A stretch of DNA of 64,000 nucleotides from Streptomyces sp. DI166. GTDB lineage: Bacteria; Actinomycetota; Actinomycetes; Streptomycetales; Streptomycetaceae. The notes under the pieces are model-generated. The model ran no database searches, was not told the origin of the DNA, and saw only the letters and a program-made list of their open reading frames with translations. Each line of letters begins with the position of its first letter. Position 1 is the first letter of the stretch. Positions 1 through 26,023 of the stretch are shown in pieces. Location: NCBI RefSeq assembly GCF_900091315.1, contig NZ_FLSP01000023.1:1-64000 (forward strand), given 5' to 3'. The translations under genes were made by a program, and so were the position numbers.

Positions 1-237
1 TTCGCCAACCTCACGTACAGCCACTACGCGCTGATCTACGAGTGGGGAAGCATGTCCGACGCCGAGGTCCTCGCCCATGCGCGAAGCCTGGTGCGGAGTC
101 CGGCGTTCCGCCGCTACTGGCAGCTGTCGCGCGACGCCAAGGCCGCGCTCCCCGAGGACAGTACGGAGGCGCGCTTCTTCCGGCTCTTCGACCGGGCGAT
201 CCGCGAAGCCTCCACGGGTGACGGATCACCCGCCTGA
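1..237 (+). CDS. C-terminal part of an unidentified protein (5' end outside window)
   Basis: Frame 1 is open from the first base and stops at 235-237, so this is the last 78 codons of a gene that begins before the window. An ATG at position 52 could start a 61-residue protein, but the coding pattern continues upstream of it (FANLTYSHYALIYEWGS), so a longer protein is more likely. The segment is helical and rich in Trp, Arg and Tyr (SPAFRRYWQLSRDAK). It resembles small Streptomyces proteins of the DUF6082 type, a weak recollection. It is followed by about 75 bases of non-coding sequence and a decayed citrate-synthase-like gene. Confidence 0.6.
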   Translation, partial: FANLTYSHYALIYEWGSMSDAEVLAHARSLVRSPAFRRYWQLSRDAKAALPEDSTEARFFRLFDRAIREASTGDGSPA

Positions 238-313
238 AAATCGCCCGGACCGAGCGACCTCCGGCACCGCCACGGCCGCTCCGGCCCCACATACCGTGCC
301 GCAGGGCGGATGA

Positions 314-1234
314 TCTTTCGGTCCTCCGACTGGCCAAGCCGCCGACGCGCTGCCCGAATGCACCGGGCCCACCGGCTGGTTGAGGGTCGCGGTCGTCGCC
401 GCGGCGACCGCGGACCCGCTGCGCTTCGACCTGTCCGAGGACGCCGTCCTCGGCACCGCACGCACGCTCATCCCCACCCTCATCGCCGCCCCGCCCCCGG
501 CACGGCGCCACCACCGCGACACCGGCCCCCTCGCCGCCCTCCTGTGGGCGCGACTCAGCGGGCTGCCCGCCGACGAGGACTGTGTGCGTGTCCTGGACAC
601 GGTGCTCGCCCTGCTCGCCGACCACGACCTCGCCGCCTCCACGCTGGCCGTGCGCGTCGCCGCCTCCGCCCGAGCGCACGCCTACGCGGCCGTCTGCGCG
701 GGTCTGGACGTCCTGGAGGGCCCCTTGCACGGCGCGTCCAGCGGGCTCGCCCACCGGATGCTCCTGGACGTCCTAGACCGCGGTGACGCGGCCCCGGTGA
801 TCGCCGAGGAACTGCGCGCCGGACGCCGCATCCCCGGCCTCGGGCACCGGCTCCACCCCGGCGAGGACCACGCGCGCGTGCTGTTCGATACGAAACCTGG
901 GCCGACCAAGTCCGCCCCACCGCGAGGACCACGCGCGCGTGCTGTTCGAGCTGCTGGGGCGGATCCCCCAGGGCCGAATCCGCCCTGGCGGCGGCCGCGA
1001 CATCGTCCCCACGACCGCCCGGCACACGCCGCTGCACGCCAATGTCGACCTGGCCCTGGCCGTGTTCACCGCGTCCTGCGGCATGCCCGCCACCGCGGGC
1101 GAGACGATCTTCGCCGTCGCCCGGACGGCGGGCTGGATCGTCCACGCGCTGGAGGAGTACGGCGAGCGCCCCCGAGGATGCGCCCCAGTGGTCACTACGC
1201 CGGCCCGAGGCCGCCCCGACCACTGCCGGAGTAG
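314..1234 (+). pseudogene. Citrate-synthase-like remnant, disrupted
   Basis: Pieces of a citrate synthase/methylcitrate synthase-like protein lie in two frames. Frame 2 carries the middle of the protein, including the family substrate-binding segment GPLHGASSG (about 721-747) and the GLGHRLHPGEDHARVLF region near 838-888. A 61-base insertion carrying a 28-base duplication (861-888 and 922-949) then moves the reading to frame 3. The C-terminal part (HANVDLALAVFTASCGMPA, WIVHALEEYGERP) continues there. The family-like end (RPSGHYAGPRPPRPLPE, stop 1232-1234) is back in frame 2 and is restored if one C is added to the run at 1169-1173. An in-frame TGA at 311 precedes the homologous region, so the N-terminal third is also missing. 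It probably no longer makes a working enzyme. It lies near a citrate-type two-component system. Confidence 0.75.
861..949 (+). repeat. 28-bp direct duplication inside the citrate-synthase remnant
   Basis: The same 28 bases, beginning GCGAGGACCACGCGCG, occur at 861-888 and 922-949. They are separated by 33 bases (889-921) that do not match the surrounding gene. The 61-base period is not a multiple of three and shifts the reading frame. The family-like protein continues directly after the second copy. Confidence 0.9.
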
Positions 1235-19186: not shown

Positions 19187-20929
19187 TCACGCTTCCCCCT
19201 CGGGTCCGGTGTTCGTCCCCTCCTGGCACGTGCCGCCGGGCTGTCCCGGGATCCGTGTGGTGCGGGGCTTGCGGGTCGTTCCGGTGCGCGTGCTGCTCAT
19301 GGGTGTGCGGGGTCCGGGCACCCTCGTCCTGGGCCGGCGTCCTGCCCTGCCGACGGGGGCCGTGGCGGCGGGGGTGGTGGGGCGGGACTGGGTGCGGTAG
19401 GGGCGTCGGGGGGTGGTGACCGACCGGGACGGCGGGGCGTCGGTCGATGGTGCCGGGGCCTTGGTCGGGTGGGGGTCGGGCACGTCGTGGGTCGGGTGGG
19501 CGACCGGCGCACCGTTGGTCGCGTGGACGTCCGGCGCACCGTTGGTCGCGTGGACGTCCGGCGCACCGTTGGTCGCGTGGACGTCCGGCGCACCGTTGGT
19601 CGCGTGGACATCCGGCGCACCGTTGGTCGGGATGGTTTCCGGCGCCTCGGCCGCGGGGGTGTGGTCCGCAAGTGCCGCATCGGCGTGCTGCGCGGCGCCC
19701 CGGTCCGACGCTGCGGGCGCGGGCGTACGTCCGCGTTCCGCGCGCAGGCAGCGTCGGATCTTTTCCGGGTCCAGGCCCTCGTTGCACGCCTGGTGCAGGA
19801 GGCGTGCGAAGAGGTAGTCGGGGTCTGCCCCGAGGGCCATGGCGAGGGCCTCCCGGGCCTCCAGTTCGTCACCGGTGGACCAGGCGACCCAGCCGACGAG
19901 GGTGAGGCACGGCGCGGCGTGCTCGTTGTAGGGGCCGACGCAGCGGCGGGCCATGGCTCGCCACAGACGCAGTGCGGGTGAGGCCTCGTCGCCCTCCATC
20001 CAGGCGGCGGCTCGGTCGCGGGTGGTGCGGTCCTGGAGGCCGAGGATGAGCCGGGCCGCTTCGTCGTGGGTGATCAGGTCGTCGTCGCGGAGGTCGGATG
20101 TGAGGGTGCCGGATACGGACGGTGCCTCGGCGAGGCGCTGCATCAGCTTCTCCGCCAGTTCCAGGGTTTCCTCGGCGACCTCCGCGCGGGTTTCCTCCTC
20201 CAGGATCCGCGGGACCAGGGCCATGCTCGCGGTGTCGAGGGCGATCTCCTGTTCCAGCGCGGCTCCGGTCTCCCAGGGCAGCAGCCTGGCTCGCAACTCA
20301 CGTAGCGTGCCTCGCACCTGGAGCCCGGCGTAGGTGGCGGCCGCGGCCAGCACCGAGGTGCCCGGGAGGCCCATGGCGGTGCCGTTGGGCGGGCAACAGG
20401 TCGCGTTGTCACAGCAGTACGACCAGAAGCGGCCGTCCGAGATGCACAGCGCCTCGATCACGGGTACGTCGAGGTGACCGCACTCGATGCGCAGTTTCTG
20501 GGCGAGCGGGCGCAGCCGCTCCATGACCTGGCGCCCGGACTCCCCGGCCGCGGGCTCCTGGCAGAGAAAGGCCACGATCTGCTCGGGGCGTGCGCCTCGG
20601 CGTTCGCTGCCCGTGACCAGCCCGTGGGCCAACTGGCGTGCCGCGGACGGCCAGTCGTCCGGGTTGGTGGGGATGCCGAGCCGCGCCCTCCCACCGAAGC
20701 GGCCGCGGCCGTCCCGGTCGTGCAGGGCGACCAGCACGATGCTGTCCTCGGGGCGGTAGCCCAGCAGATACGGGAGCGCGTCGGCCAGTTCGGCCGGAGT
20801 GCGCAGGGTGACCTGCTGGTCGCGGTGGCCTTCGTAGGCGGTGCAGTCGAGTTGCTTGGCGGGACGGGGGTCGTGTCCCACGATGCCGTGGTTCTCTGAG
20901 TTTCCTGTGGTTTCGCCGTGGTTCGTCAT
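19187..20929 (-). CDS. DUF4192 protein with repetitive C-terminal tail
   Basis: A 580-residue protein. Residues 35-400 form the DUF4192 domain (RTPAELADALPYLLGYRPEDSIVLVAL), widespread in actinobacteria with unknown role. It contains a Cys-rich patch (SYCCDNATCCPPNGTAMG). The tail holds five units of the nonapeptide TNGAPDVHA, then 100 residues of Pro/Thr/Arg-rich sequence, probably unstructured. The tail is encoded by a 27-bp minisatellite. It lies between the RecQ-fusion gene and the debranching-like gene, all on the minus strand. Start ATG 20929 lacks a strong ribosome binding site. Confidence 0.85.
   Translation of the reverse strand: MTNHGETTGNSENHGIVGHDPRPAKQLDCTAYEGHRDQQVTLRTPAELADALPYLLGYRPEDSIVLVALHDRDGRGRFGGRARLGIPTNPDDWPSAARQLAHGLVTGSERRGARPEQIVAFLCQEPAAGESGRQVMERLRPLAQKLRIECGHLDVPVIEALCISDGRFWSYCCDNATCCPPNGTAMGLPGTSVLAAAATYAGLQVRGTLRELRARLLPWETGAALEQEIALDTASMALVPRILEEETRAEVAEETLELAEKLMQRLAEAPSVSGTLTSDLRDDDLITHDEAARLILGLQDRTTRDRAAAWMEGDEASPALRLWRAMARRCVGPYNEHAAPCLTLVGWVAWSTGDELEAREALAMALGADPDYLFARLLHQACNEGLDPEKIRRCLRAERGRTPAPAASDRGAAQHADAALADHTPAAEAPETIPTNGAPDVHATNGAPDVHATNGAPDVHATNGAPDVHATNGAPVAHPTHDVPDPHPTKAPAPSTDAPPSRSVTTPRRPYRTQSRPTTPAATAPVGRAGRRPRTRVPGPRTPMSSTRTGTTRKPRTTRIPGQPGGTCQEGTNTGPEGEA
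19505..19639 (-). repeat. 27-bp minisatellite, five units, coding
   Basis: Units start at 19505, 19532, 19559, 19586 and 19613. The first three are identical, the fourth differs by one base and the fifth diverges at its end. Each encodes nine residues of the DUF4192 tail and preserves the frame. Confidence 0.95.
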
Positions 20930-21060
20930 GGCTAGACGATCTCGCGGAATTCAATCTTCCGCTTAGCCCTGTGGATAACTCGGGGCAGGGACATGGCAAT
21001 TCCACGTTCCGTCGGTCTCACCACGCCCCGCGCCAACCGCCCGGTCGGGAGCTCGCCGGC

Positions 21061-23214
21061 TTACCCCGCCGCGGCCAGTACCAACGGCAGAACCTCTCCG
21101 CTCCCGGCCCGCCGCAGCAGCCGTGCCGCGACCGCCAGCGTCCACCCGGTGTCGGTGTAGTCGTCGACGAGCAGTACGGGACCGCGTGAGTTCGCCAGCG
21201 CCTCGGCCAGTTCCCCGGAAACACCGAACGCATCGGACAGCGCCCTCAGCCGCTGCGCCGAGTTGCTCCGGCGCAGCGCGTGCTCGGGCCCCGTGCGGGT
21301 CAGCGTGCCGAGGAACGGCAGCCGTCCGACATCCGCGATGCCCCGCGCCAGCGTGCCCACCAGCTGCGGCCGCGTCAGGGACGGCACCGCGACCACACCC
21401 ACCGGCCGCGCCATCGCCTGCTCGCCGCCCGATGCCCAACCACCCGGCGACCGGGCCCAGTCGGCGAGAACCGACACGGCTGCTCGCAGGACGTCGTCGG
21501 GGACCGGTCCGTCCGCCGCGTTCTCGGTCAGGAGCGGACGCAGGCGGTTGCCCCACCCGATGTCCGAGAGGCGTCCGAGGGCACGCCCGGTGGAGCACTG
21601 TTCGCCGGCCGGAATGCGGCCCTTGAGCTCGATGCCCAGGGCGGGCATGCCCGTCGGCCACATCCGGCGCGGCTCGATCTCGACGCCGGGCCGGTCCAGT
21701 TCCTTGACTGCTCCCGTCAGCGCCTCCGGTGTGACGGCCGGATCGGCCCACGGGCCCGCACAGTTGTCGCAGCGGCCGCACGGGGCCGCGCCCTCGTCGT
21801 CCAACTGGCGGCGCAGGAACTCCATCCGGCACTCATGGGTGCTCGCGTACTCGCGCATGGCCTGTTGCTCGGCCGCCCGCTGCCGCGCCACCCACGCATA
21901 GCGCTCGGCGTCGTACACCCACTCCGCTCCGGTGGCGGTCCAGCCGCCCTTGACGCGCTTCACCGCGCCGTCGACGTCCAGCACCTTCAGCATCGTCTCC
22001 AGGCGGCTGCGCCGTAGTTCCACGGCCGCCTCCAAGGCGGGCACGGACAGCGGGCGTCCGGCTCCGGCGAGGGCCGAGAGGGTCTGCCGGACTTGGTCCT
22101 CGGGCGGGAAGGCCGTGTCGGCGAAGTAGCGCCAGATGGCCTCGTCCTCCTTGCCCGGCAGCAGCAGGACATCGGCGTGGGCGACGCCCCGGCCGGCCCG
22201 CCCCACCTGCTGGTAGTAGGCGATGGGTGAGGAAGGTGAGCCGAGGTGGACCACGAAGCCGAGGTCGGGTTTGTCGAAGCCCATGCCGAGCGCGGAGGTG
22301 GCGACCAGCGCCTTGACCCGGTTGGCGAGCAGATCCTCCTCCGCCTGGAGCCGGTCCGCGTTCTCCGTGCGCCCGGTGTAGGAGGCCACGGCGAAGCCGC
22401 GCTGCCTGAGGAAGGCGGCGGCCTCCTCGGCCGCGGCCACGGTCAGGGCGTAGATGATCCCCGAGCCCGGGAGGTCGTCCAGGTGCTCGGCCAGCCAGGC
22501 AAGGCGGTGTGCGGCGTCCGGCAGCTGGACCACGCCGAGCCGCAGGCTCTCCCGGTCCAGCGGGCCGCGCAGCACCAGGGCCTCACCGGCGCCCGTTCCC
22601 AGTTGCTCGGCGACATCCGCCGTGACGCGCGCGTTGGCCGTCGCTGTCGTGGCCAGCACGGGCACGCCGGGGCCCAGCTCGGCCAGCATTGCCCGCAGCC
22701 GCCGGTAATCGGGGCGGAAGTCGTGACCCCAGTCGGAGATGCAATGCGCCTCGTCGACCACGAGCAGACCGGTCGTCGCCGCGAGCTTGGGCAGCATCTG
22801 GTCGCGGAAGTCGACGGAGTTGAGCCGCTCCGGGCTCACCAGGAGCACATCGGTCTCGCCCCGCTCGACCTCGTCGTGGATGGCGTCCCACTCCTCCGGG
22901 TTGGCGGAGTTGATGGTGCGCGCCCGGATTCCGGCCCGTTCCGCCGCCTCGACCTGGTTGCGCATCAGCGCCAGCAGCGGCGACACGATCACTGTGGGTC
23001 CCGAGTCGCGTCGCCGGAGCAGCGCGGTGGCCACGAAGTACACGGCCGACTTGCCCCAGCCGGTGCGCTGCACCACCAGGGCGCGTCTGCGCTCCCGCAC
23101 CAGGGCGGCCACCGCCTGCCACTGGTCCTCCCGCAGACGCGCGGTACCTCCCGGGTCGCCCACCAGCTGACCGAGGACGGTGTCGGCTTCGGCACGGAGT
23201 TCCAGTTCGTCCAT
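21061..23214 (-). CDS. RecQ-family helicase fused to a phosphoribosyltransferase-like domain
   Basis: A 717-residue protein. The N-terminal half is a RecQ DNA helicase: Walker A TGWGKS (51-56), DEAH 154-157 in VVDEAHCISDWGHDFRPDYR, motif VI YYQQVGRAGRG (333-343) and RecQ zinc ligands Cys462, Cys479, Cys482 and Cys485. There is no HRDC domain. Residues about 600-717 instead form a phosphoribosyltransferase-like fold with the PRPP-loop pattern VDDYTDTGWT (683-692), as in ComF and purine PRTases. ATG 23214 with a G-rich stretch just upstream is chosen; 47 upstream codons lack coding character. The pairing suggests helicase action coupled to nucleotide salvage or a PRPP signal, which is inference. 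Its upstream region holds three palindromic repeats. Confidence 0.9.
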   Translation of the reverse strand: MDELELRAEADTVLGQLVGDPGGTARLREDQWQAVAALVRERRRALVVQRTGWGKSAVYFVATALLRRRDSGPTVIVSPLLALMRNQVEAAERAGIRARTINSANPEEWDAIHDEVERGETDVLLVSPERLNSVDFRDQMLPKLAATTGLLVVDEAHCISDWGHDFRPDYRRLRAMLAELGPGVPVLATTATANARVTADVAEQLGTGAGEALVLRGPLDRESLRLGVVQLPDAAHRLAWLAEHLDDLPGSGIIYALTVAAAEEAAAFLRQRGFAVASYTGRTENADRLQAEEDLLANRVKALVATSALGMGFDKPDLGFVVHLGSPSSPIAYYQQVGRAGRGVAHADVLLLPGKEDEAIWRYFADTAFPPEDQVRQTLSALAGAGRPLSVPALEAAVELRRSRLETMLKVLDVDGAVKRVKGGWTATGAEWVYDAERYAWVARQRAAEQQAMREYASTHECRMEFLRRQLDDEGAAPCGRCDNCAGPWADPAVTPEALTGAVKELDRPGVEIEPRRMWPTGMPALGIELKGRIPAGEQCSTGRALGRLSDIGWGNRLRPLLTENAADGPVPDDVLRAAVSVLADWARSPGGWASGGEQAMARPVGVVAVPSLTRPQLVGTLARGIADVGRLPFLGTLTRTGPEHALRRSNSAQRLRALSDAFGVSGELAEALANSRGPVLLVDDYTDTGWTLAVAARLLRRAGSGEVLPLVLAAAG

Positions 23215-23746
23215 GCCCCCATGCAACCCGATGGCACTGACAGTCGGCCACTTCAGTGGCGCGCGATGCGAGCGGGACCCCGGCACGCGCGCGCGGGGCA
23301 CAGCTCTACCGCAGCAGCGACGGACGCTGGCTCGGGGACCCCGGCACGCGCGCACGGGGCACAGGATCCCAATCGACGAGACTCAGCGCTGCCCGGTTGG
23401 CTCCCCGGCACGCGCGCGTGGGGCGGGATCAGTGCGACGGGAACAGTGCACTACCGAGAGGGTCCGATCACGCGGCGTAATCAACATGGGGGGCGCATTC
23501 AAAAGGCGTACGACGGCGGACGCACCCGCGCGTCAGCAGGTGGCACACGGGGTAGGGATATAACACTCACTCCTCCCTATATCGGTCGGGCATCCCAATT
23601 GCTCGTTGCCGCAACCAAGTTCGACAGGAAGAATTGAAGTCCGCTCCCCGCACGGCTCGCCCGTGGTCCGGCAGGGCTTTGCTGCGGTGTGCGCTCCCCC
23701 GAATCCACCCCGCCCTCAGTGTGGGCGCGTAGCCGAAGGGAGGACC
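23215..23746. other. 532-bp region between RecQ fusion and RadC-like gene
   Basis: Divergent promoter region. The first 210 bases hold three long palindromic repeats. After 23460 the base composition changes: it is AT-richer, with TATAAC near 23559 and TATATCGG near 23579, which may belong to the rightward promoter. No coding pattern is evident. Confidence 0.5.
23274..23424. repeat. Three palindromic repeats upstream of the RecQ fusion
   Basis: Copies lie at 23274-23303, 23335-23364 and 23403-23424. The first two are 30 bases and differ at one base. The shared core is CCCCGGCACGCGCGC followed by a GGGGC end; in the third copy CACGCGCGCGTG is a perfect palindrome. Spacing between copies is 61 and about 68 bases. 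Confidence 0.9.
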
Positions 23747-24373
23747 GTGACCTTCGGATTCGCTCCGTCCACCGCGGCATCCACGTCGACCTCCACCGAC
23801 CTGTCCGCCTCTACGACGGGCCGCGTGCTGGAACTCGCGGAGTGGGCTGCCGCCGGGATCCCCCTGCTGCGCAACCCCCGCGAGGTCGTCAGTGGACTGC
23901 ATGCGCGGCACCACCCCAGACCGGCGACCGCGATCGTGGCCGTGCTCGACCCGGACGAACGGCTCCGGGCGAGCGCCTCGTTCACCCGCCGTACAACTCA
24001 GGCCGACGGCTGGATGTTCCGCAACGTGCTGCTCGACCAGTTGCGCCGGGTCATTCCGCACGACCTGCGCCGCCGCACCCCCGTGCGCACCGCTGTGCTG
24101 CTCTACTGCCGCGAGGGCGACGCGCGTTGGACGCAGGAGGACGGGGCGTGGATGTGGGGGCTGCGTGACGCCTGCACGCTGCACGGGCTGCGCTGTGGCG
24201 CGTACATCACGCTGACCCGGGACGGCTGGCAGGTCCTCGGAGAGGGCCGCGGTGGGCGTCGCCCCAGCGCGAACTCCGCTCCGGAGTCCTTCGCCACGTC
24301 CGAGTCACCGCCTCCGCTGCCCCGCACCGGAGGCGCCGCCTCGGACATCCTGCGCCGCGCCGCGGCCCGCTGA
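23747..24373 (+). CDS. Unassigned protein, possibly a degenerate RadC/JAB-fold protein
   Basis: This 208-residue protein has no certain family. Residues about 50-160 (AVLDPDERLRASASFTRR, WMFRNVLLDQLRRVIPHDLR, AVLLYCREGDARWTQEDGAW, LRDACTLHGLRCGAYITLTRDGWQVL) follow the order of a RadC/JAB domain. The metal-binding HNHPSG is replaced by YCREGD, so if related it is not a metalloprotease. This alignment is by eye. The tail is Ser/Pro-rich. GTG 23747 follows GGGAGG. The gene is divergent from the RecQ fusion and convergent with the next gene. Confidence 0.75.
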   Translation: MTFGFAPSTAASTSTSTDLSASTTGRVLELAEWAAAGIPLLRNPREVVSGLHARHHPRPATAIVAVLDPDERLRASASFTRRTTQADGWMFRNVLLDQLRRVIPHDLRRRTPVRTAVLLYCREGDARWTQEDGAWMWGLRDACTLHGLRCGAYITLTRDGWQVLGEGRGGRRPSANSAPESFATSESPPPLPRTGGAASDILRRAAAR

Positions 24374-24585
24374 GCGGCTCGGCTCCGTCTCCCCCGACTT
24401 CCCGACGGAACGTTTCCGCGCTGCCCTGGCCAGGGCAGCGCGCCGCACACCCTCGTTCACTGACAAGTCCCCGCAACCGTCGGTCGACGCGCCCCAGGGC
24501 GTCGTCGAACCAACCGCCACACCTTCCCGCGGGCACGCCGAAGGCCGCACCGTGCAGGTACTCCTGCGGCAACACCGGTTCGCCG

Positions 24586-24612
24586 ACCGCCCCCGAAGGA
24601 ACCGGGGGCGGT
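24586..24612 (-). terminator. Hairpin at the end of the UvrD-C-like gene
   Basis: ACCGCCCCCG (24586-24595) pairs with CGGGGGCGGT (24603-24612) over a 7-base loop, directly after the stop codon at 24613-24615. Confidence 0.7.
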
Positions 24613-25274
24613 TCAGACGCCCGCGCCCAGCACGGAGTTGATCTGCTGCGGGTCGCCGCAGACGATCAGCAGAGCGCCGGCCCGGGTGAGGGCCAGGGGC
24701 AGGGCGGTGGCGGCAGCGGAGTCGGATCCCCCGTTGACGGCGACCACGACGACGGGACGCTCGGCCGCACGGCTCGCGACGGCGGCGTCCGCATAGAAGA
24801 CGTCGTCGGCGGCGTCGTGCTGGCTCCAGTAGGCAGCCTCGCCGAAGGACAGCTCGTGGGCGGCCCACGGGTGCTGTTCGCCGGTGGTGATCACCAGCAC
24901 GTCACCGGGGGCACGCCCCGACTCCAGCAGCAGGTCGACGGCTTCCTCGGCAGCATCGAGCGCACCCTCGGCCGAGGCCGGGATCAGCTGGATCTGCGGA
25001 GTCGCCTTGGCCGGCGCGGAGGCGGGGGCAGCCGGAGCGGAAGCTCCCGGCTTGGGCGCGGCCACATCACGGGGCGTGCGTTGCGCCGGCGCCGTGGGCC
25101 GCGGGGGGCCCCGGGACGGCCGGGACGCGACGGAGCCGCGGGACGCGGACCGGGTACGGGGCGGGGGGTCGGCGCGGTGCGGCCGCTGGCCGGCGTGGCG
25201 CGGGGACCCTGGGCACTCTCGTGAATCTGAGGCTCCTCGGGAATGAGAGGCATGGGCTGATATTTATCAAACAT
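24613..25274 (-). CDS. Pro-rich protein with UvrD-C-like end; frame broken at a G run
   Basis: The C-terminal 150 residues are continuous: GDVLVITTGEQHPWA and ALTRAGALLIVCGDPQQIN resemble the last domain of SF1 (UvrD-like) helicases, including a motif VI-like ALTRA, but there is no Walker A anywhere. The N-terminal part, MFDKYQPMPLIPEEPQIHES and a Pro/Arg-rich linker, is in another frame starting at ATG 25274. Adding one base to the G run at 25103-25108 joins the two. The unbroken downstream part alone would start at GTG 25065. A real frameshift or a sequence error are both possible. Function is unknown; a degenerate helicase-derived protein is my best guess. Confidence 0.6.
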
Positions 25275-25321
25275 TGGTGCGGCTCACGTGGGCGGGTGGC
25301 ACACGAGTGCGAGCGGAACGG

Positions 25322-26023
25322 TCAGAAATCGAAGCCGAGCTGCCCTTCGATCTCCGGAACGCTCCGTTCCGCCCAGCTGCGGACCTTCTTGAGGTGCCGC
25401 CACTGGGGCAGCGCATCAAGATACGCCCACGACAGGCGGTGGTACGGGGTGGGCCCCCGCTCCTCCAGTGCGGCCTTGTGCACGGGCGACGGATACCCGG
25501 CATTGTCCGCGAAACCGAAGTCTGCATGGTCGATACCCAGTTCGGCCATCATTTTGTCGCGCTGAACCTTGGCGATCACCGAAGCCGCCGCGACCGCGAC
25601 GCACGACCGGTCGCCCTTGATCACCGTACGGACCTTCCACGGGTCCCCGAGGTAGTCGTGCTTGCCGTCGAGGATCACCGCGTCGGGACGGACCGGCAGG
25701 GCCTCCAGGGCACGCACCGCGGCCAGGCGCAGCGCGGCCGTCATACCCAGCTCGTCGATCTCCTCCGGCGAGGCATGCCCGAGGGCGTACGACGTCACCC
25801 ACTTCTGCAGTTGCCCGGCCAGTTCGGTGCGCCGCTTGACGGTGAGCAGCTTGGAGTCGGTGAGCCCTTCCGGGGGCCGACGCAGTCCGGTGATGGCCGC
25901 GCAGACGGTGACGGGCCCGGCCCAGGCGCCGCGCCCCACCTCGTCGACACCGGCAATGACCTTCGCTCCGGTCGTGGCGCGGAGTGAGCGCTCGACGGTG
26001 TGAGTAGGCGGTTCGTACGGCAT
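25322..26023 (-). CDS. rnhB: Ribonuclease HII
   Basis: A 233-residue RNase HII that cuts RNA in RNA/DNA hybrids and starts removal of misinserted ribonucleotides. The family signature [14 protein letters not shown] (about 24-37) carries the first Asp-Glu pair; further catalytic acids are in [10 protein letters not shown] and in the [20 protein letters not shown] region. Length is typical. Start ATG 26023. It lies alone on the minus strand between the UvrD-C-like gene and the TetR regulator. Confidence 0.95.

What the first reader, a model, noticed from the sequence alone, without database searches (positions are those of the whole stretch)
21061..23214. RecQ helicase fused to a phosphoribosyltransferase-like domain
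The helicase motifs and RecQ zinc site are intact, but the HRDC domain is replaced by about 118 residues with a PRPP-loop pattern (VDDYTDTGWT, 683-692). A helicase physically joined to a nucleotide-salvage fold suggests coupling of DNA unwinding to PRPP or nucleotide levels, or a nucleic-acid modifying role. The mechanism is not known to me.
Basis: partly seen in the sequence, partly recalled or inferred. Interest (0 to 1): 0.62.

Follow-up and report, generated by a model that had tools for sequence, protein, structure and literature searches.

The report
Streptomyces RqlH helicase with PRTase domain
This is the Streptomyces copy of RqlH, an already described DNA helicase joined to a nucleotide-binding (phosphoribosyltransferase-like) domain; in some other bacteria the same protein is a toxin held in check by a partner, but here it is a conserved gene without that partner.

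Summary
The gene is real, on the minus strand (ATG 23214 to stop 21061, 717 aa). It has an intact RecQ-type motor, a four-cysteine zinc site, no HRDC hit, and a C-terminal domain of about 228 residues, not 118. That domain models well (pLDDT 91); its best structural matches are the PRTases ComFC and ShosT. The PRPP-loop acids are conserved (D684 in 140, D685 in 129 of 142 rows). The architecture is published as RqlH and, as a toxin, PsyrT; the window protein matches the PsyrT profile end to end (E 1e-214), and Streptomyces is already reported to carry RqlH without its DprA-like partner RqlI.

Copies beside RqlI keep Q655, N658, D684 and D685 in 27 of 27. Streptomyces-type copies lack Q655 and N658 in 93 of 93 but keep both acids. 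Other solo copies are mixed. This follows one deep split of the tree and is not significant in a phylogenetic pairs test: a lead, not proof. Most likely it is a chromosomal 3'-5' repair motor whose PRTase-like domain binds a PRPP-like ligand and handles or senses DNA, rather than a toxin.

The parts
21061..23214 (-). rqlH coding sequence (717 aa, ATG at 23214, stop codon at 21061-21063)
   Evidence: full-length PsyrT profile match; many relatives match from residue 1
22117..23214 (-). RecQ-type ATPase/helicase core, residues 1-366
23047..23064 (-). Walker A TGWGKS (51-56); K55 equals K49 of F11-type E. coli RqlH
22744..22755 (-). DEAH box (154-157); D154 equals E. coli D148
22189..22209 (-). 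motif VI QVGRAGR (336-342)
21910..22116 (-). extra segment between motor and zinc site (367-435), helical with a hairpin: the RqlH-specific linker
   Evidence: secondary structure; RecQ core 4q48 aligns its 8..408 to 6..489 here
21760..21831 (-). tetracysteine zinc site (C462, C479, C482, C485)
21064..21747 (-). ComFC/PRTase-like C-domain, residues 490-717
21241..21264 (-). start of the helix after the flexible loop, NSAQRLRA (651-658); R655 and A658 stand where RqlI-paired copies have Q and N
21139..21177 (-). PRPP loop VLLVDDYTDTGWT (680-692); D685 equals E. coli D663, needed for toxicity there

Best explanation
It is the chromosomal RqlH of a Streptomyces (identity about 0.97). Shown elsewhere for relatives: RqlH is an ATP-driven 3'-5' DNA helicase whose PRTase domain is not needed for unwinding. 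Inferred here: the Streptomyces protein is a housekeeping DNA-repair translocase without the RqlI antitoxin, and its ComFC-like domain still binds PRPP or a nucleotide through the intact PRPP loop but, with the conserved Q and N of the flexible-loop side replaced by R and A, works as a ligand-sensing or single-strand-DNA-handling module rather than as the genotoxic enzyme seen in E. coli (mechanism about 0.45).
For: Full-length PsyrT profile match, 712.8 bits; 42% identity over 10-717 to an E. coli RqlH whose K49, D148 and DIVD-663 numbering fits the published protein. C-domain fold closest to ComFC and ShosT. ComFC binds PRPP and nucleotides by this loop and has affinity for ssDNA (PMC9005727, passages). 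22 same-genus genomes are listed, each with a match, and none among the 20 of 81 non-matching rows shown. Syntenic neighbours: upstream ORF in 73 of 79, rnhB in 68 of 79, DUF4192 in 61 of 79 near loci. No RqlI in any of the 93 usable Streptomyces-type loci; one DprA in the genome, on another contig. D684, D685, W691, T692 in 93 of 93 Streptomyces-type copies, Q655 and N658 in 0 of 93.
Against: No ligand binding or activity was tested. The Q/N loss follows one deep branch and is not significant by independent pairs. Pfam PRTase detection does not separate the groups: 18 of 26 paired, 31 of 60 solo, 29 of 31 Streptomyces-type. Eleven of 109 other solo copies (12 if E counts as D at 688) keep the complete site, and no true RqlI was found in those 12 genomes, some of them incomplete, so solo status does not require an altered site. 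In ComFC a loop mutant that no longer binds nucleotide still handled ssDNA in the cytoplasm (PMC9005727, passages), which speaks against a tight coupling of ligand and DNA. The roles of Q655 and N658 are not known to me.
Confidence: 0.55

Rival explanations
1. It is an active PsyrT-type toxin or anti-phage effector in Streptomyces, restrained by an unlinked or unknown partner (for instance the single DprA).
For: Full-length PsyrT match; D685, the residue whose change largely abolished E. coli toxicity, is kept in 93 of 93; some paired relatives lie in defence operons.
Against: Genus-wide, syntenic and chromosomal rather than patchy; no true RqlI in the genome, the only DprA matches RqlI at E 1.5e-11 against 1.8e-57 to 7.3e-205 for linked RqlI in five genomes, one of them the query's own; Q655 and N658 absent in 93 of 93. 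In a study of the isolate NILS69 no protective activity of PsyrTA was detected under overexpression (PMC12409345, passages).
Confidence: 0.18
2. The domain is a working PRTase that alters bases in DNA opened by the helicase (the model of Russell and Mulvey).
For: PRPP loop intact; published model.
Against: No such activity is reported in the passages seen. Among the 109 other solo copies D685 is lost in 22 and D688 in 52, while W691 stays in 109 of 109, which fits a structural or binding role better.
Confidence: 0.1
3. The domain is only a structural or protein-docking remnant.
For: Weak sequence match to PRTases outside the loop; it is dispensable for helicase activity in M. smegmatis (as cited in PMC4670107).
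Against: D684, D685, G690, W691, T692 in 93 of 93 Streptomyces-type copies.
Confidence: 0.17
4. A fused counterpart of ComFA-ComFC that moves incoming single strands during DNA uptake.
For: Closest fold is ComFC; a helicase and a PRTase also occur together in comF (PMC4670107 discussion).
Against: The five neighbouring window proteins scanned hold no competence family; the motor is RecQ, not ComFA; Streptomyces is not known to me as naturally transformable (recalled).
Confidence: 0.07

Closest known systems
RqlH (M. smegmatis MSMEG_5935; E. coli F11 RqlH)
   Same: RecQ-like ATPase, extra linker, four-cysteine site, no HRDC, ComF/PRTase-like C-domain; 42% identity end to end to an F11-type E. 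coli RqlH, L171
   Different: No RqlI beside it; Q655 and N658 replaced by R and A; G at 690 where 19 of 27 paired copies have R
PsyrT of PsyrTA (toxin-antitoxin / defence pair)
   Same: Profile matches over 9-715 of 717 residues, E 1e-214
   Different: The antitoxin PsyrA/RqlI was not found in this genome; chromosomal and syntenic across the genus
ComFC (H. pylori, PDB 7p0h)
   Same: Best structural match of the C-domain, Z 12.8, rmsd 5.1, 177 residues aligned; same loop family (DDIITTGTTL, against DDYTDTGWTL)
   Different: 13% identity; ComFC is a separate membrane-associated protein with its own zinc finger, not fused to a helicase
ShosT (PRTase toxin of ShosTA, PDB 8zvc, 8zvd)
   Same: Second-best fold match, Z 10.8, rmsd 3.7; its partner ShosA is DprA-like
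   Different: 13% identity; chains of 412-424 residues, too short to hold a RecQ motor as well (inferred from the listing)
Canonical RecQ
   Same: Motor and zinc site, Z about 25-30 to RecQ cores
   Different: No HRDC found, extra linker before the zinc site, PRTase-like C-domain; TIGR01389 recQ scores 276 bits against a cut-off of 640

Membership tests
RqlH | RecQ-like ATPase with intact motifs | tested here: met
RqlH | family-specific linker between ATPase and zinc site | tested here: met
   about 70-80 residues (367-435) more than RecQ cores have; that this defines the family is recalled from Ordonez et al. 2012
RqlH | tetracysteine zinc site | tested here: met
   C462, C479, C482, C485
RqlH | no HRDC domain | tested here: met
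   no HRDC in Pfam at E up to 1
RqlH | ComF-like PRTase module at the C-end | tested here: met
   by fold; by sequence TIGR00201 comF only E 0.0047
RqlH | end-to-end similarity to a characterised member | tested here: met
   42% over 10-717 to E. coli L171, whose residue numbering fits the published F11 protein; neither F11 itself nor the M. smegmatis protein was compared
RqlH | ATP-dependent 3'-5' unwinding | not testable with these tools
   motor residues intact only
PsyrTA system | PsyrT toxin homologue | tested here: met
   E 1e-214
PsyrTA system | adjacent DprA-like PsyrA/RqlI antitoxin | tested here: not met
   the genome's only DprA match is on contig C8 and is of the canonical kind
PsyrTA system | toxicity relieved by the partner | not testable with these tools
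   needs an experiment
Type I PRTase fold | PRTase fold by structure | tested here: met
   ComFC, ShosT, APRT, PurF among the best matches
Type I PRTase fold | PRPP loop with two acids conserved | tested here: met
   140 and 129 of 142 rows, (the window counted twice)
Type I PRTase fold | PRPP binding or transfer activity | not testable with these tools
   needs an experiment
Canonical RecQ (TIGR01389) | score over the curated cut-off | tested here: not met
   276.4 bits against 640.2

The most novel reading that the evidence does not exclude
RqlH exists in two functional states that can be read from its PRTase site. Copies beside RqlI keep the whole site (Q655, N658, D684, D685) because it is the enzyme that RqlI restrains; the large antitoxin-free lineage that includes Streptomyces has re-tuned or relaxed the site several times, which explains why RqlH without RqlI is tolerated, and has turned the domain into a PRPP or nucleotide sensor on a housekeeping helicase. 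Russell and Mulvey raised the question and reported no major sequence differences.
Probability: 0.3. Interest if true: 0.5.

Novelty: already known. Interest (0 to 1): 0.3.

Why it matters
The fusion itself is known, so the window adds no new kind of system. What could matter is an old question: why many bacteria, Streptomyces included, carry RqlH without the partner that prevents its genotoxicity in E. coli. The motif difference found here gives two residues and one acidic loop to test, in harmless laboratory hosts, for whether the solo protein is a tamed version and what its PRTase-like domain binds.

Tried and rejected
Considered and rejected: that the PRPP-like motif is chance (conserved, and fold confirmed); that the protein is canonical RecQ with an unrecognised HRDC (no Pfam hit, PRTase fold); that it is phage or plasmid cargo (genus-wide and syntenic; in the phage collection 0 of 31 matching records cover 80% of it; in the plasmid collection 11 of 159 do, one a 2.8 Mb Streptomyces replicon).

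Tried without yield: a PDB sequence profile search of the C-domain gave mostly PRPP-loop matches to PRPP synthetases and PRTases (best E 0.0022). The BFVD fold search gave nothing at E below 0.001. Paper searches for ShosTA led to no mechanistic paper that I opened; ShosT is known here by PDB titles and one passage. The survey of actinobacterial defence systems (PMC10482375, passages) has no occurrence of PsyrTA or RqlH in its main text. A search for Streptomyces with RecQ, helicase and phosphoribosyltransferase found two papers, both already seen.

Results against my lead, kept: the phylogenetic pairs test was not significant (6 pairs; complete site goes the same way in 1.9, the other way in 1.0; Q/N 1.1 against 0); Pfam detection does not separate groups; the 12 genomes of solo copies with a complete site hold no true RqlI (best E 4.8e-17, one with no match; some are 81-90% complete). 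The Fisher value (3e-15) ignores relatedness and should not be quoted as support. Three of 27 paired copies have lost D688.

Rows dropped: of 282 loci that could hold RqlH, 42 (duplicates of one place, viral fragments, pseudogenes, broken or cut copies) were left out by hand before (240 kept), 9 more for a short downstream flank, L154 (frame broken) and L146 (partial): 229 used. The RqlI matches in L159 and L182 cover only part of RqlI. The tree used 143 rows: 25 of 27 paired (L155, L299 left out as partial), 109 solo, 8 of 93 Streptomyces-type and the window. The Pfam counts used 26 of 27 paired, 60 of 109 solo and 30 of 93 Streptomyces-type copies plus the window. Searches counted the window twice (P0001 and L098). 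The loci L009-L088 came from a pattern scan in which DDYTDTGW was one of six seeds, which favours an intact loop.

Full report
What is there. The interval 21061-23214 holds one gene, on the minus strand: ATG at 23214, 717 residues. The + strand reading of the interval is broken by stops. The genome is a Streptomyces by its nearest relatives. Pfam places DEAD at 29-198, Helicase_C at 247-342, RecQ_Zn_bind at 445-485 and, below its cut-off, Pribosyltran at 680-708; HRDC is not found. Motor motifs and the four cysteines 462, 479, 482, 485 are intact.

The C-domain. Residues 490-717 were modelled with 49 sequences: pLDDT 91.2, pTM 0.88. Among PDB chains the best matches are H. pylori ComFC (7p0h, Z 12.8, rmsd 5.1, 177 residues), then ShosT with phosphate or PRPP-Mg (Z 10.8, rmsd 3.7, 164 and 167 residues), then APRTs and PurF near Z 10; Foldseek alone also puts ComFC first, E 1.3e-4. 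The least confident stretch of the model (about 640-649) lies where PRTases have their flexible loop (inferred from the order of elements). The full-length model (pLDDT 84.0) aligns with RecQ cores at Z 25-30 through the zinc site, with an extra segment between motor and zinc site.

Is the loop conserved? In 142 aligned rows (141 loci and the window, the window's own genome copy being counted again) D684 is kept in 140, D685 in 129, W691 in 142 and T692 in 139. The glycine before W691 is often R. The family signature is roughly DDxxxSxWT, with an invariant tryptophan where ComFC has threonine.

What it is. PADLOC's PsyrT profile matches residues 9-715 at E 1e-214. The E. coli RqlH from a chromosome (L171) is 42% identical over 10-717, and its K49, D148 and DIVD at 663 agree with the numbering in the paper on strain F11, so the window's K55, D154 and D685 are the residues changed there. 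The M. smegmatis founder paper (Ordonez et al. 2012) is not held; what I say of it is recalled or from passages of PMC4670107. Of PMC4670107 I saw the abstract, passages, sections 12 and 15 and part 1 of 2 of the discussion. It reports that RqlH is genotoxic in E. coli without RqlI; that removing the PRTase domain, or D663A, removes the growth and SOS effects (D663A leaves a modest effect on viable counts); that the domain alone is not toxic; that helicase-dead K49A and D148A still lower viability and raise SOS; that RqlI binding needs the PRTase domain; and that Streptomyces have RqlH and no RqlI. PsyrTA appears in later papers as a toxin-antitoxin or defence pair (listing and passages).

Distribution and surroundings. 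In a sample of 296 genomes of the phylum, 56 places in 55 genomes run from residue 30 or before to residue 701 or beyond, and two more genomes have broken copies (counted by hand from its table, which is cut below the weak matches). In the class, 165 of 246 genomes match at E 1e-130 or better, by genus 67 of 103; 22 same-genus genomes are listed with a match and none among the 20 non-matching rows shown of 81. In 79 near loci (5 of them outside Streptomyces and its sisters) the upstream ORF is found in 73, rnhB in 68 and DUF4192 in 61; some contigs end early. None of these neighbours was found at the loci outside the Streptomyces-type group. This is a stable chromosomal place, not an island. 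Within it the gene itself stands in either orientation: as in the window in 28 loci, turned round between the same neighbours in 66.

The partner. A DprA-like RqlI lies in 28 of 240 loci, in each case on the same strand and downstream, 27 of them within 264 bases of the RqlH stop or overlapping it and one behind a frame-broken copy; none is of the Streptomyces type. The window's genome has one DprA, on contig C8, which matches RqlI at E 1.5e-11, against 1.8e-57 to 7.3e-205 for the linked RqlI of five genomes, one of them the query's own.

A difference between paired and solo copies. In 229 usable loci, the 27 paired copies have Q646, Q655, N658, D684 and D685 in 27 of 27 and D688 in 24. The 93 Streptomyces-type copies have R655 in 93, never N658, D684 and D685 in 93, and D or E at 688 in 92. 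The other 109 solo copies have Q655 in 35, N658 in 46, D685 in 87, D688 in 57, and the complete site in 11. The pattern was first seen on 10 paired copies; at Q655, N658, D684 and D685 it held when 17 more were added, at D688 it did not hold fully. On a tree of the motor region alone, all 25 paired rows used fall among 44 rows on one side; the other 99 rows, Streptomyces included, are all solo. Complete sites (E allowed at 685 and 688): 33 of 44 against 1 of 99; Q and N together 43 of 44 against 14 of 99. The fewest changes needed over the whole tree are 7 for Q/N, 4 for D685 and 18 for the acid at 688. So the site has been loosened repeatedly, chiefly on the solo side, but the link to pairing rests on one deep split, and the independent-pairs test has only 6 pairs and is not significant. 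Solo members of the 44-row side keep the site in 11 of 19 (paired 22 of 25), and the 12 genomes of solo copies with a complete site hold no true RqlI. Loss of RqlI can therefore precede any change of the site, or another control exists. Pfam's PRTase model is also no help: it matches 18 of 26 paired, 31 of 60 solo and 29 of 31 Streptomyces-type domains.

How it probably works. Shown for relatives: 3'-5' helicase; PRTase domain not needed for unwinding; domain and D663 needed for toxicity; ComFC uses the same loop to bind PRPP and nucleotides and has affinity for ssDNA, though a loop mutant still handles ssDNA in the cytoplasm (PMC9005727, passages). Inferred for the window: a repair motor with a domain that still binds a PRPP-like ligand and handles or senses DNA, without toxin function. 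The weakest step is the last.

Verdict. Interest lies in the testable question of the antitoxin-free form.

Noticed in passing
window 19187-26023 and the same place in Streptomyces-type loci (for example L070, L071): rqlH stands in either orientation between the same neighbours (DUF4192 on one side, the unnamed ORF and rnhB on the other): as in the window in 28 loci, inverted in 66. The 28 are mostly the closer relatives (81% identity or more), so one in-place inversion of a single gene, or a replacement, is possible.
   Followed up: partly
L156:2688-12767 (E. coli plasmid NZ_OX030731.1): rqlH and rqlI sit inside a type I restriction operon, hsdM-hsdS-rqlH-rqlI-hsdR; a near-identical rqlH covers at least 80% of the query in 53 of 5426 E. 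coli genomes.
   Followed up: partly
L160:1-14091 (Acinetobacter plasmid NZ_CP090068.1): rqlH and rqlI lie inside a BREX operon, between pglX and pglZ, with a DUF262 gene.
   Followed up: no
L164:6179-14559 (viral contig): WYL regulator, rqlH, DprA-like rqlI, HsdM and HsdS in a row on a contig filed as viral.
   Followed up: partly
L172:4941-8238 and L173:5941-9267 (E. coli chromosomes): rqlH is annotated as a pseudogene while the downstream rqlI is annotated intact, as expected if the helicase is the harmful half.
   Followed up: no
L144 and L145 (genome G045, contig C10): One small actinobacterial genome carries two rqlH-rqlI pairs about 21 kb apart, the RqlH copies 72% alike.
   Followed up: no
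L157:5938-8019: A haloarchaeal plasmid carries a full-length RqlH with no DprA gene annotated or matched beside it.
   Followed up: no
L159:7974-8777 (Sinorhizobium pSymB): An RqlI match begins at the end of rqlH but covers only residues 1-268 of a 481-residue RqlI, and no gene is annotated there.
   Followed up: no
window 19187-20929: The DUF4192 protein downstream carries repeated NGAPDVHAT-like peptides in its C-terminal part.
   Followed up: no
window 23606-24373 and 24613-25065: Two ORFs without a Pfam match at E 0.01 are conserved near rqlH in 73 and 70 of 79 near loci.
   Followed up: partly
L161:5935-14028: A Tsukamurella plasmid has a solo RqlH with an altered loop (VVDESGTGW in place of VDDxxxxGW), near yajC, secD, secF, an adenine phosphoribosyltransferase and a RelA/SpoT gene.
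   Followed up: no
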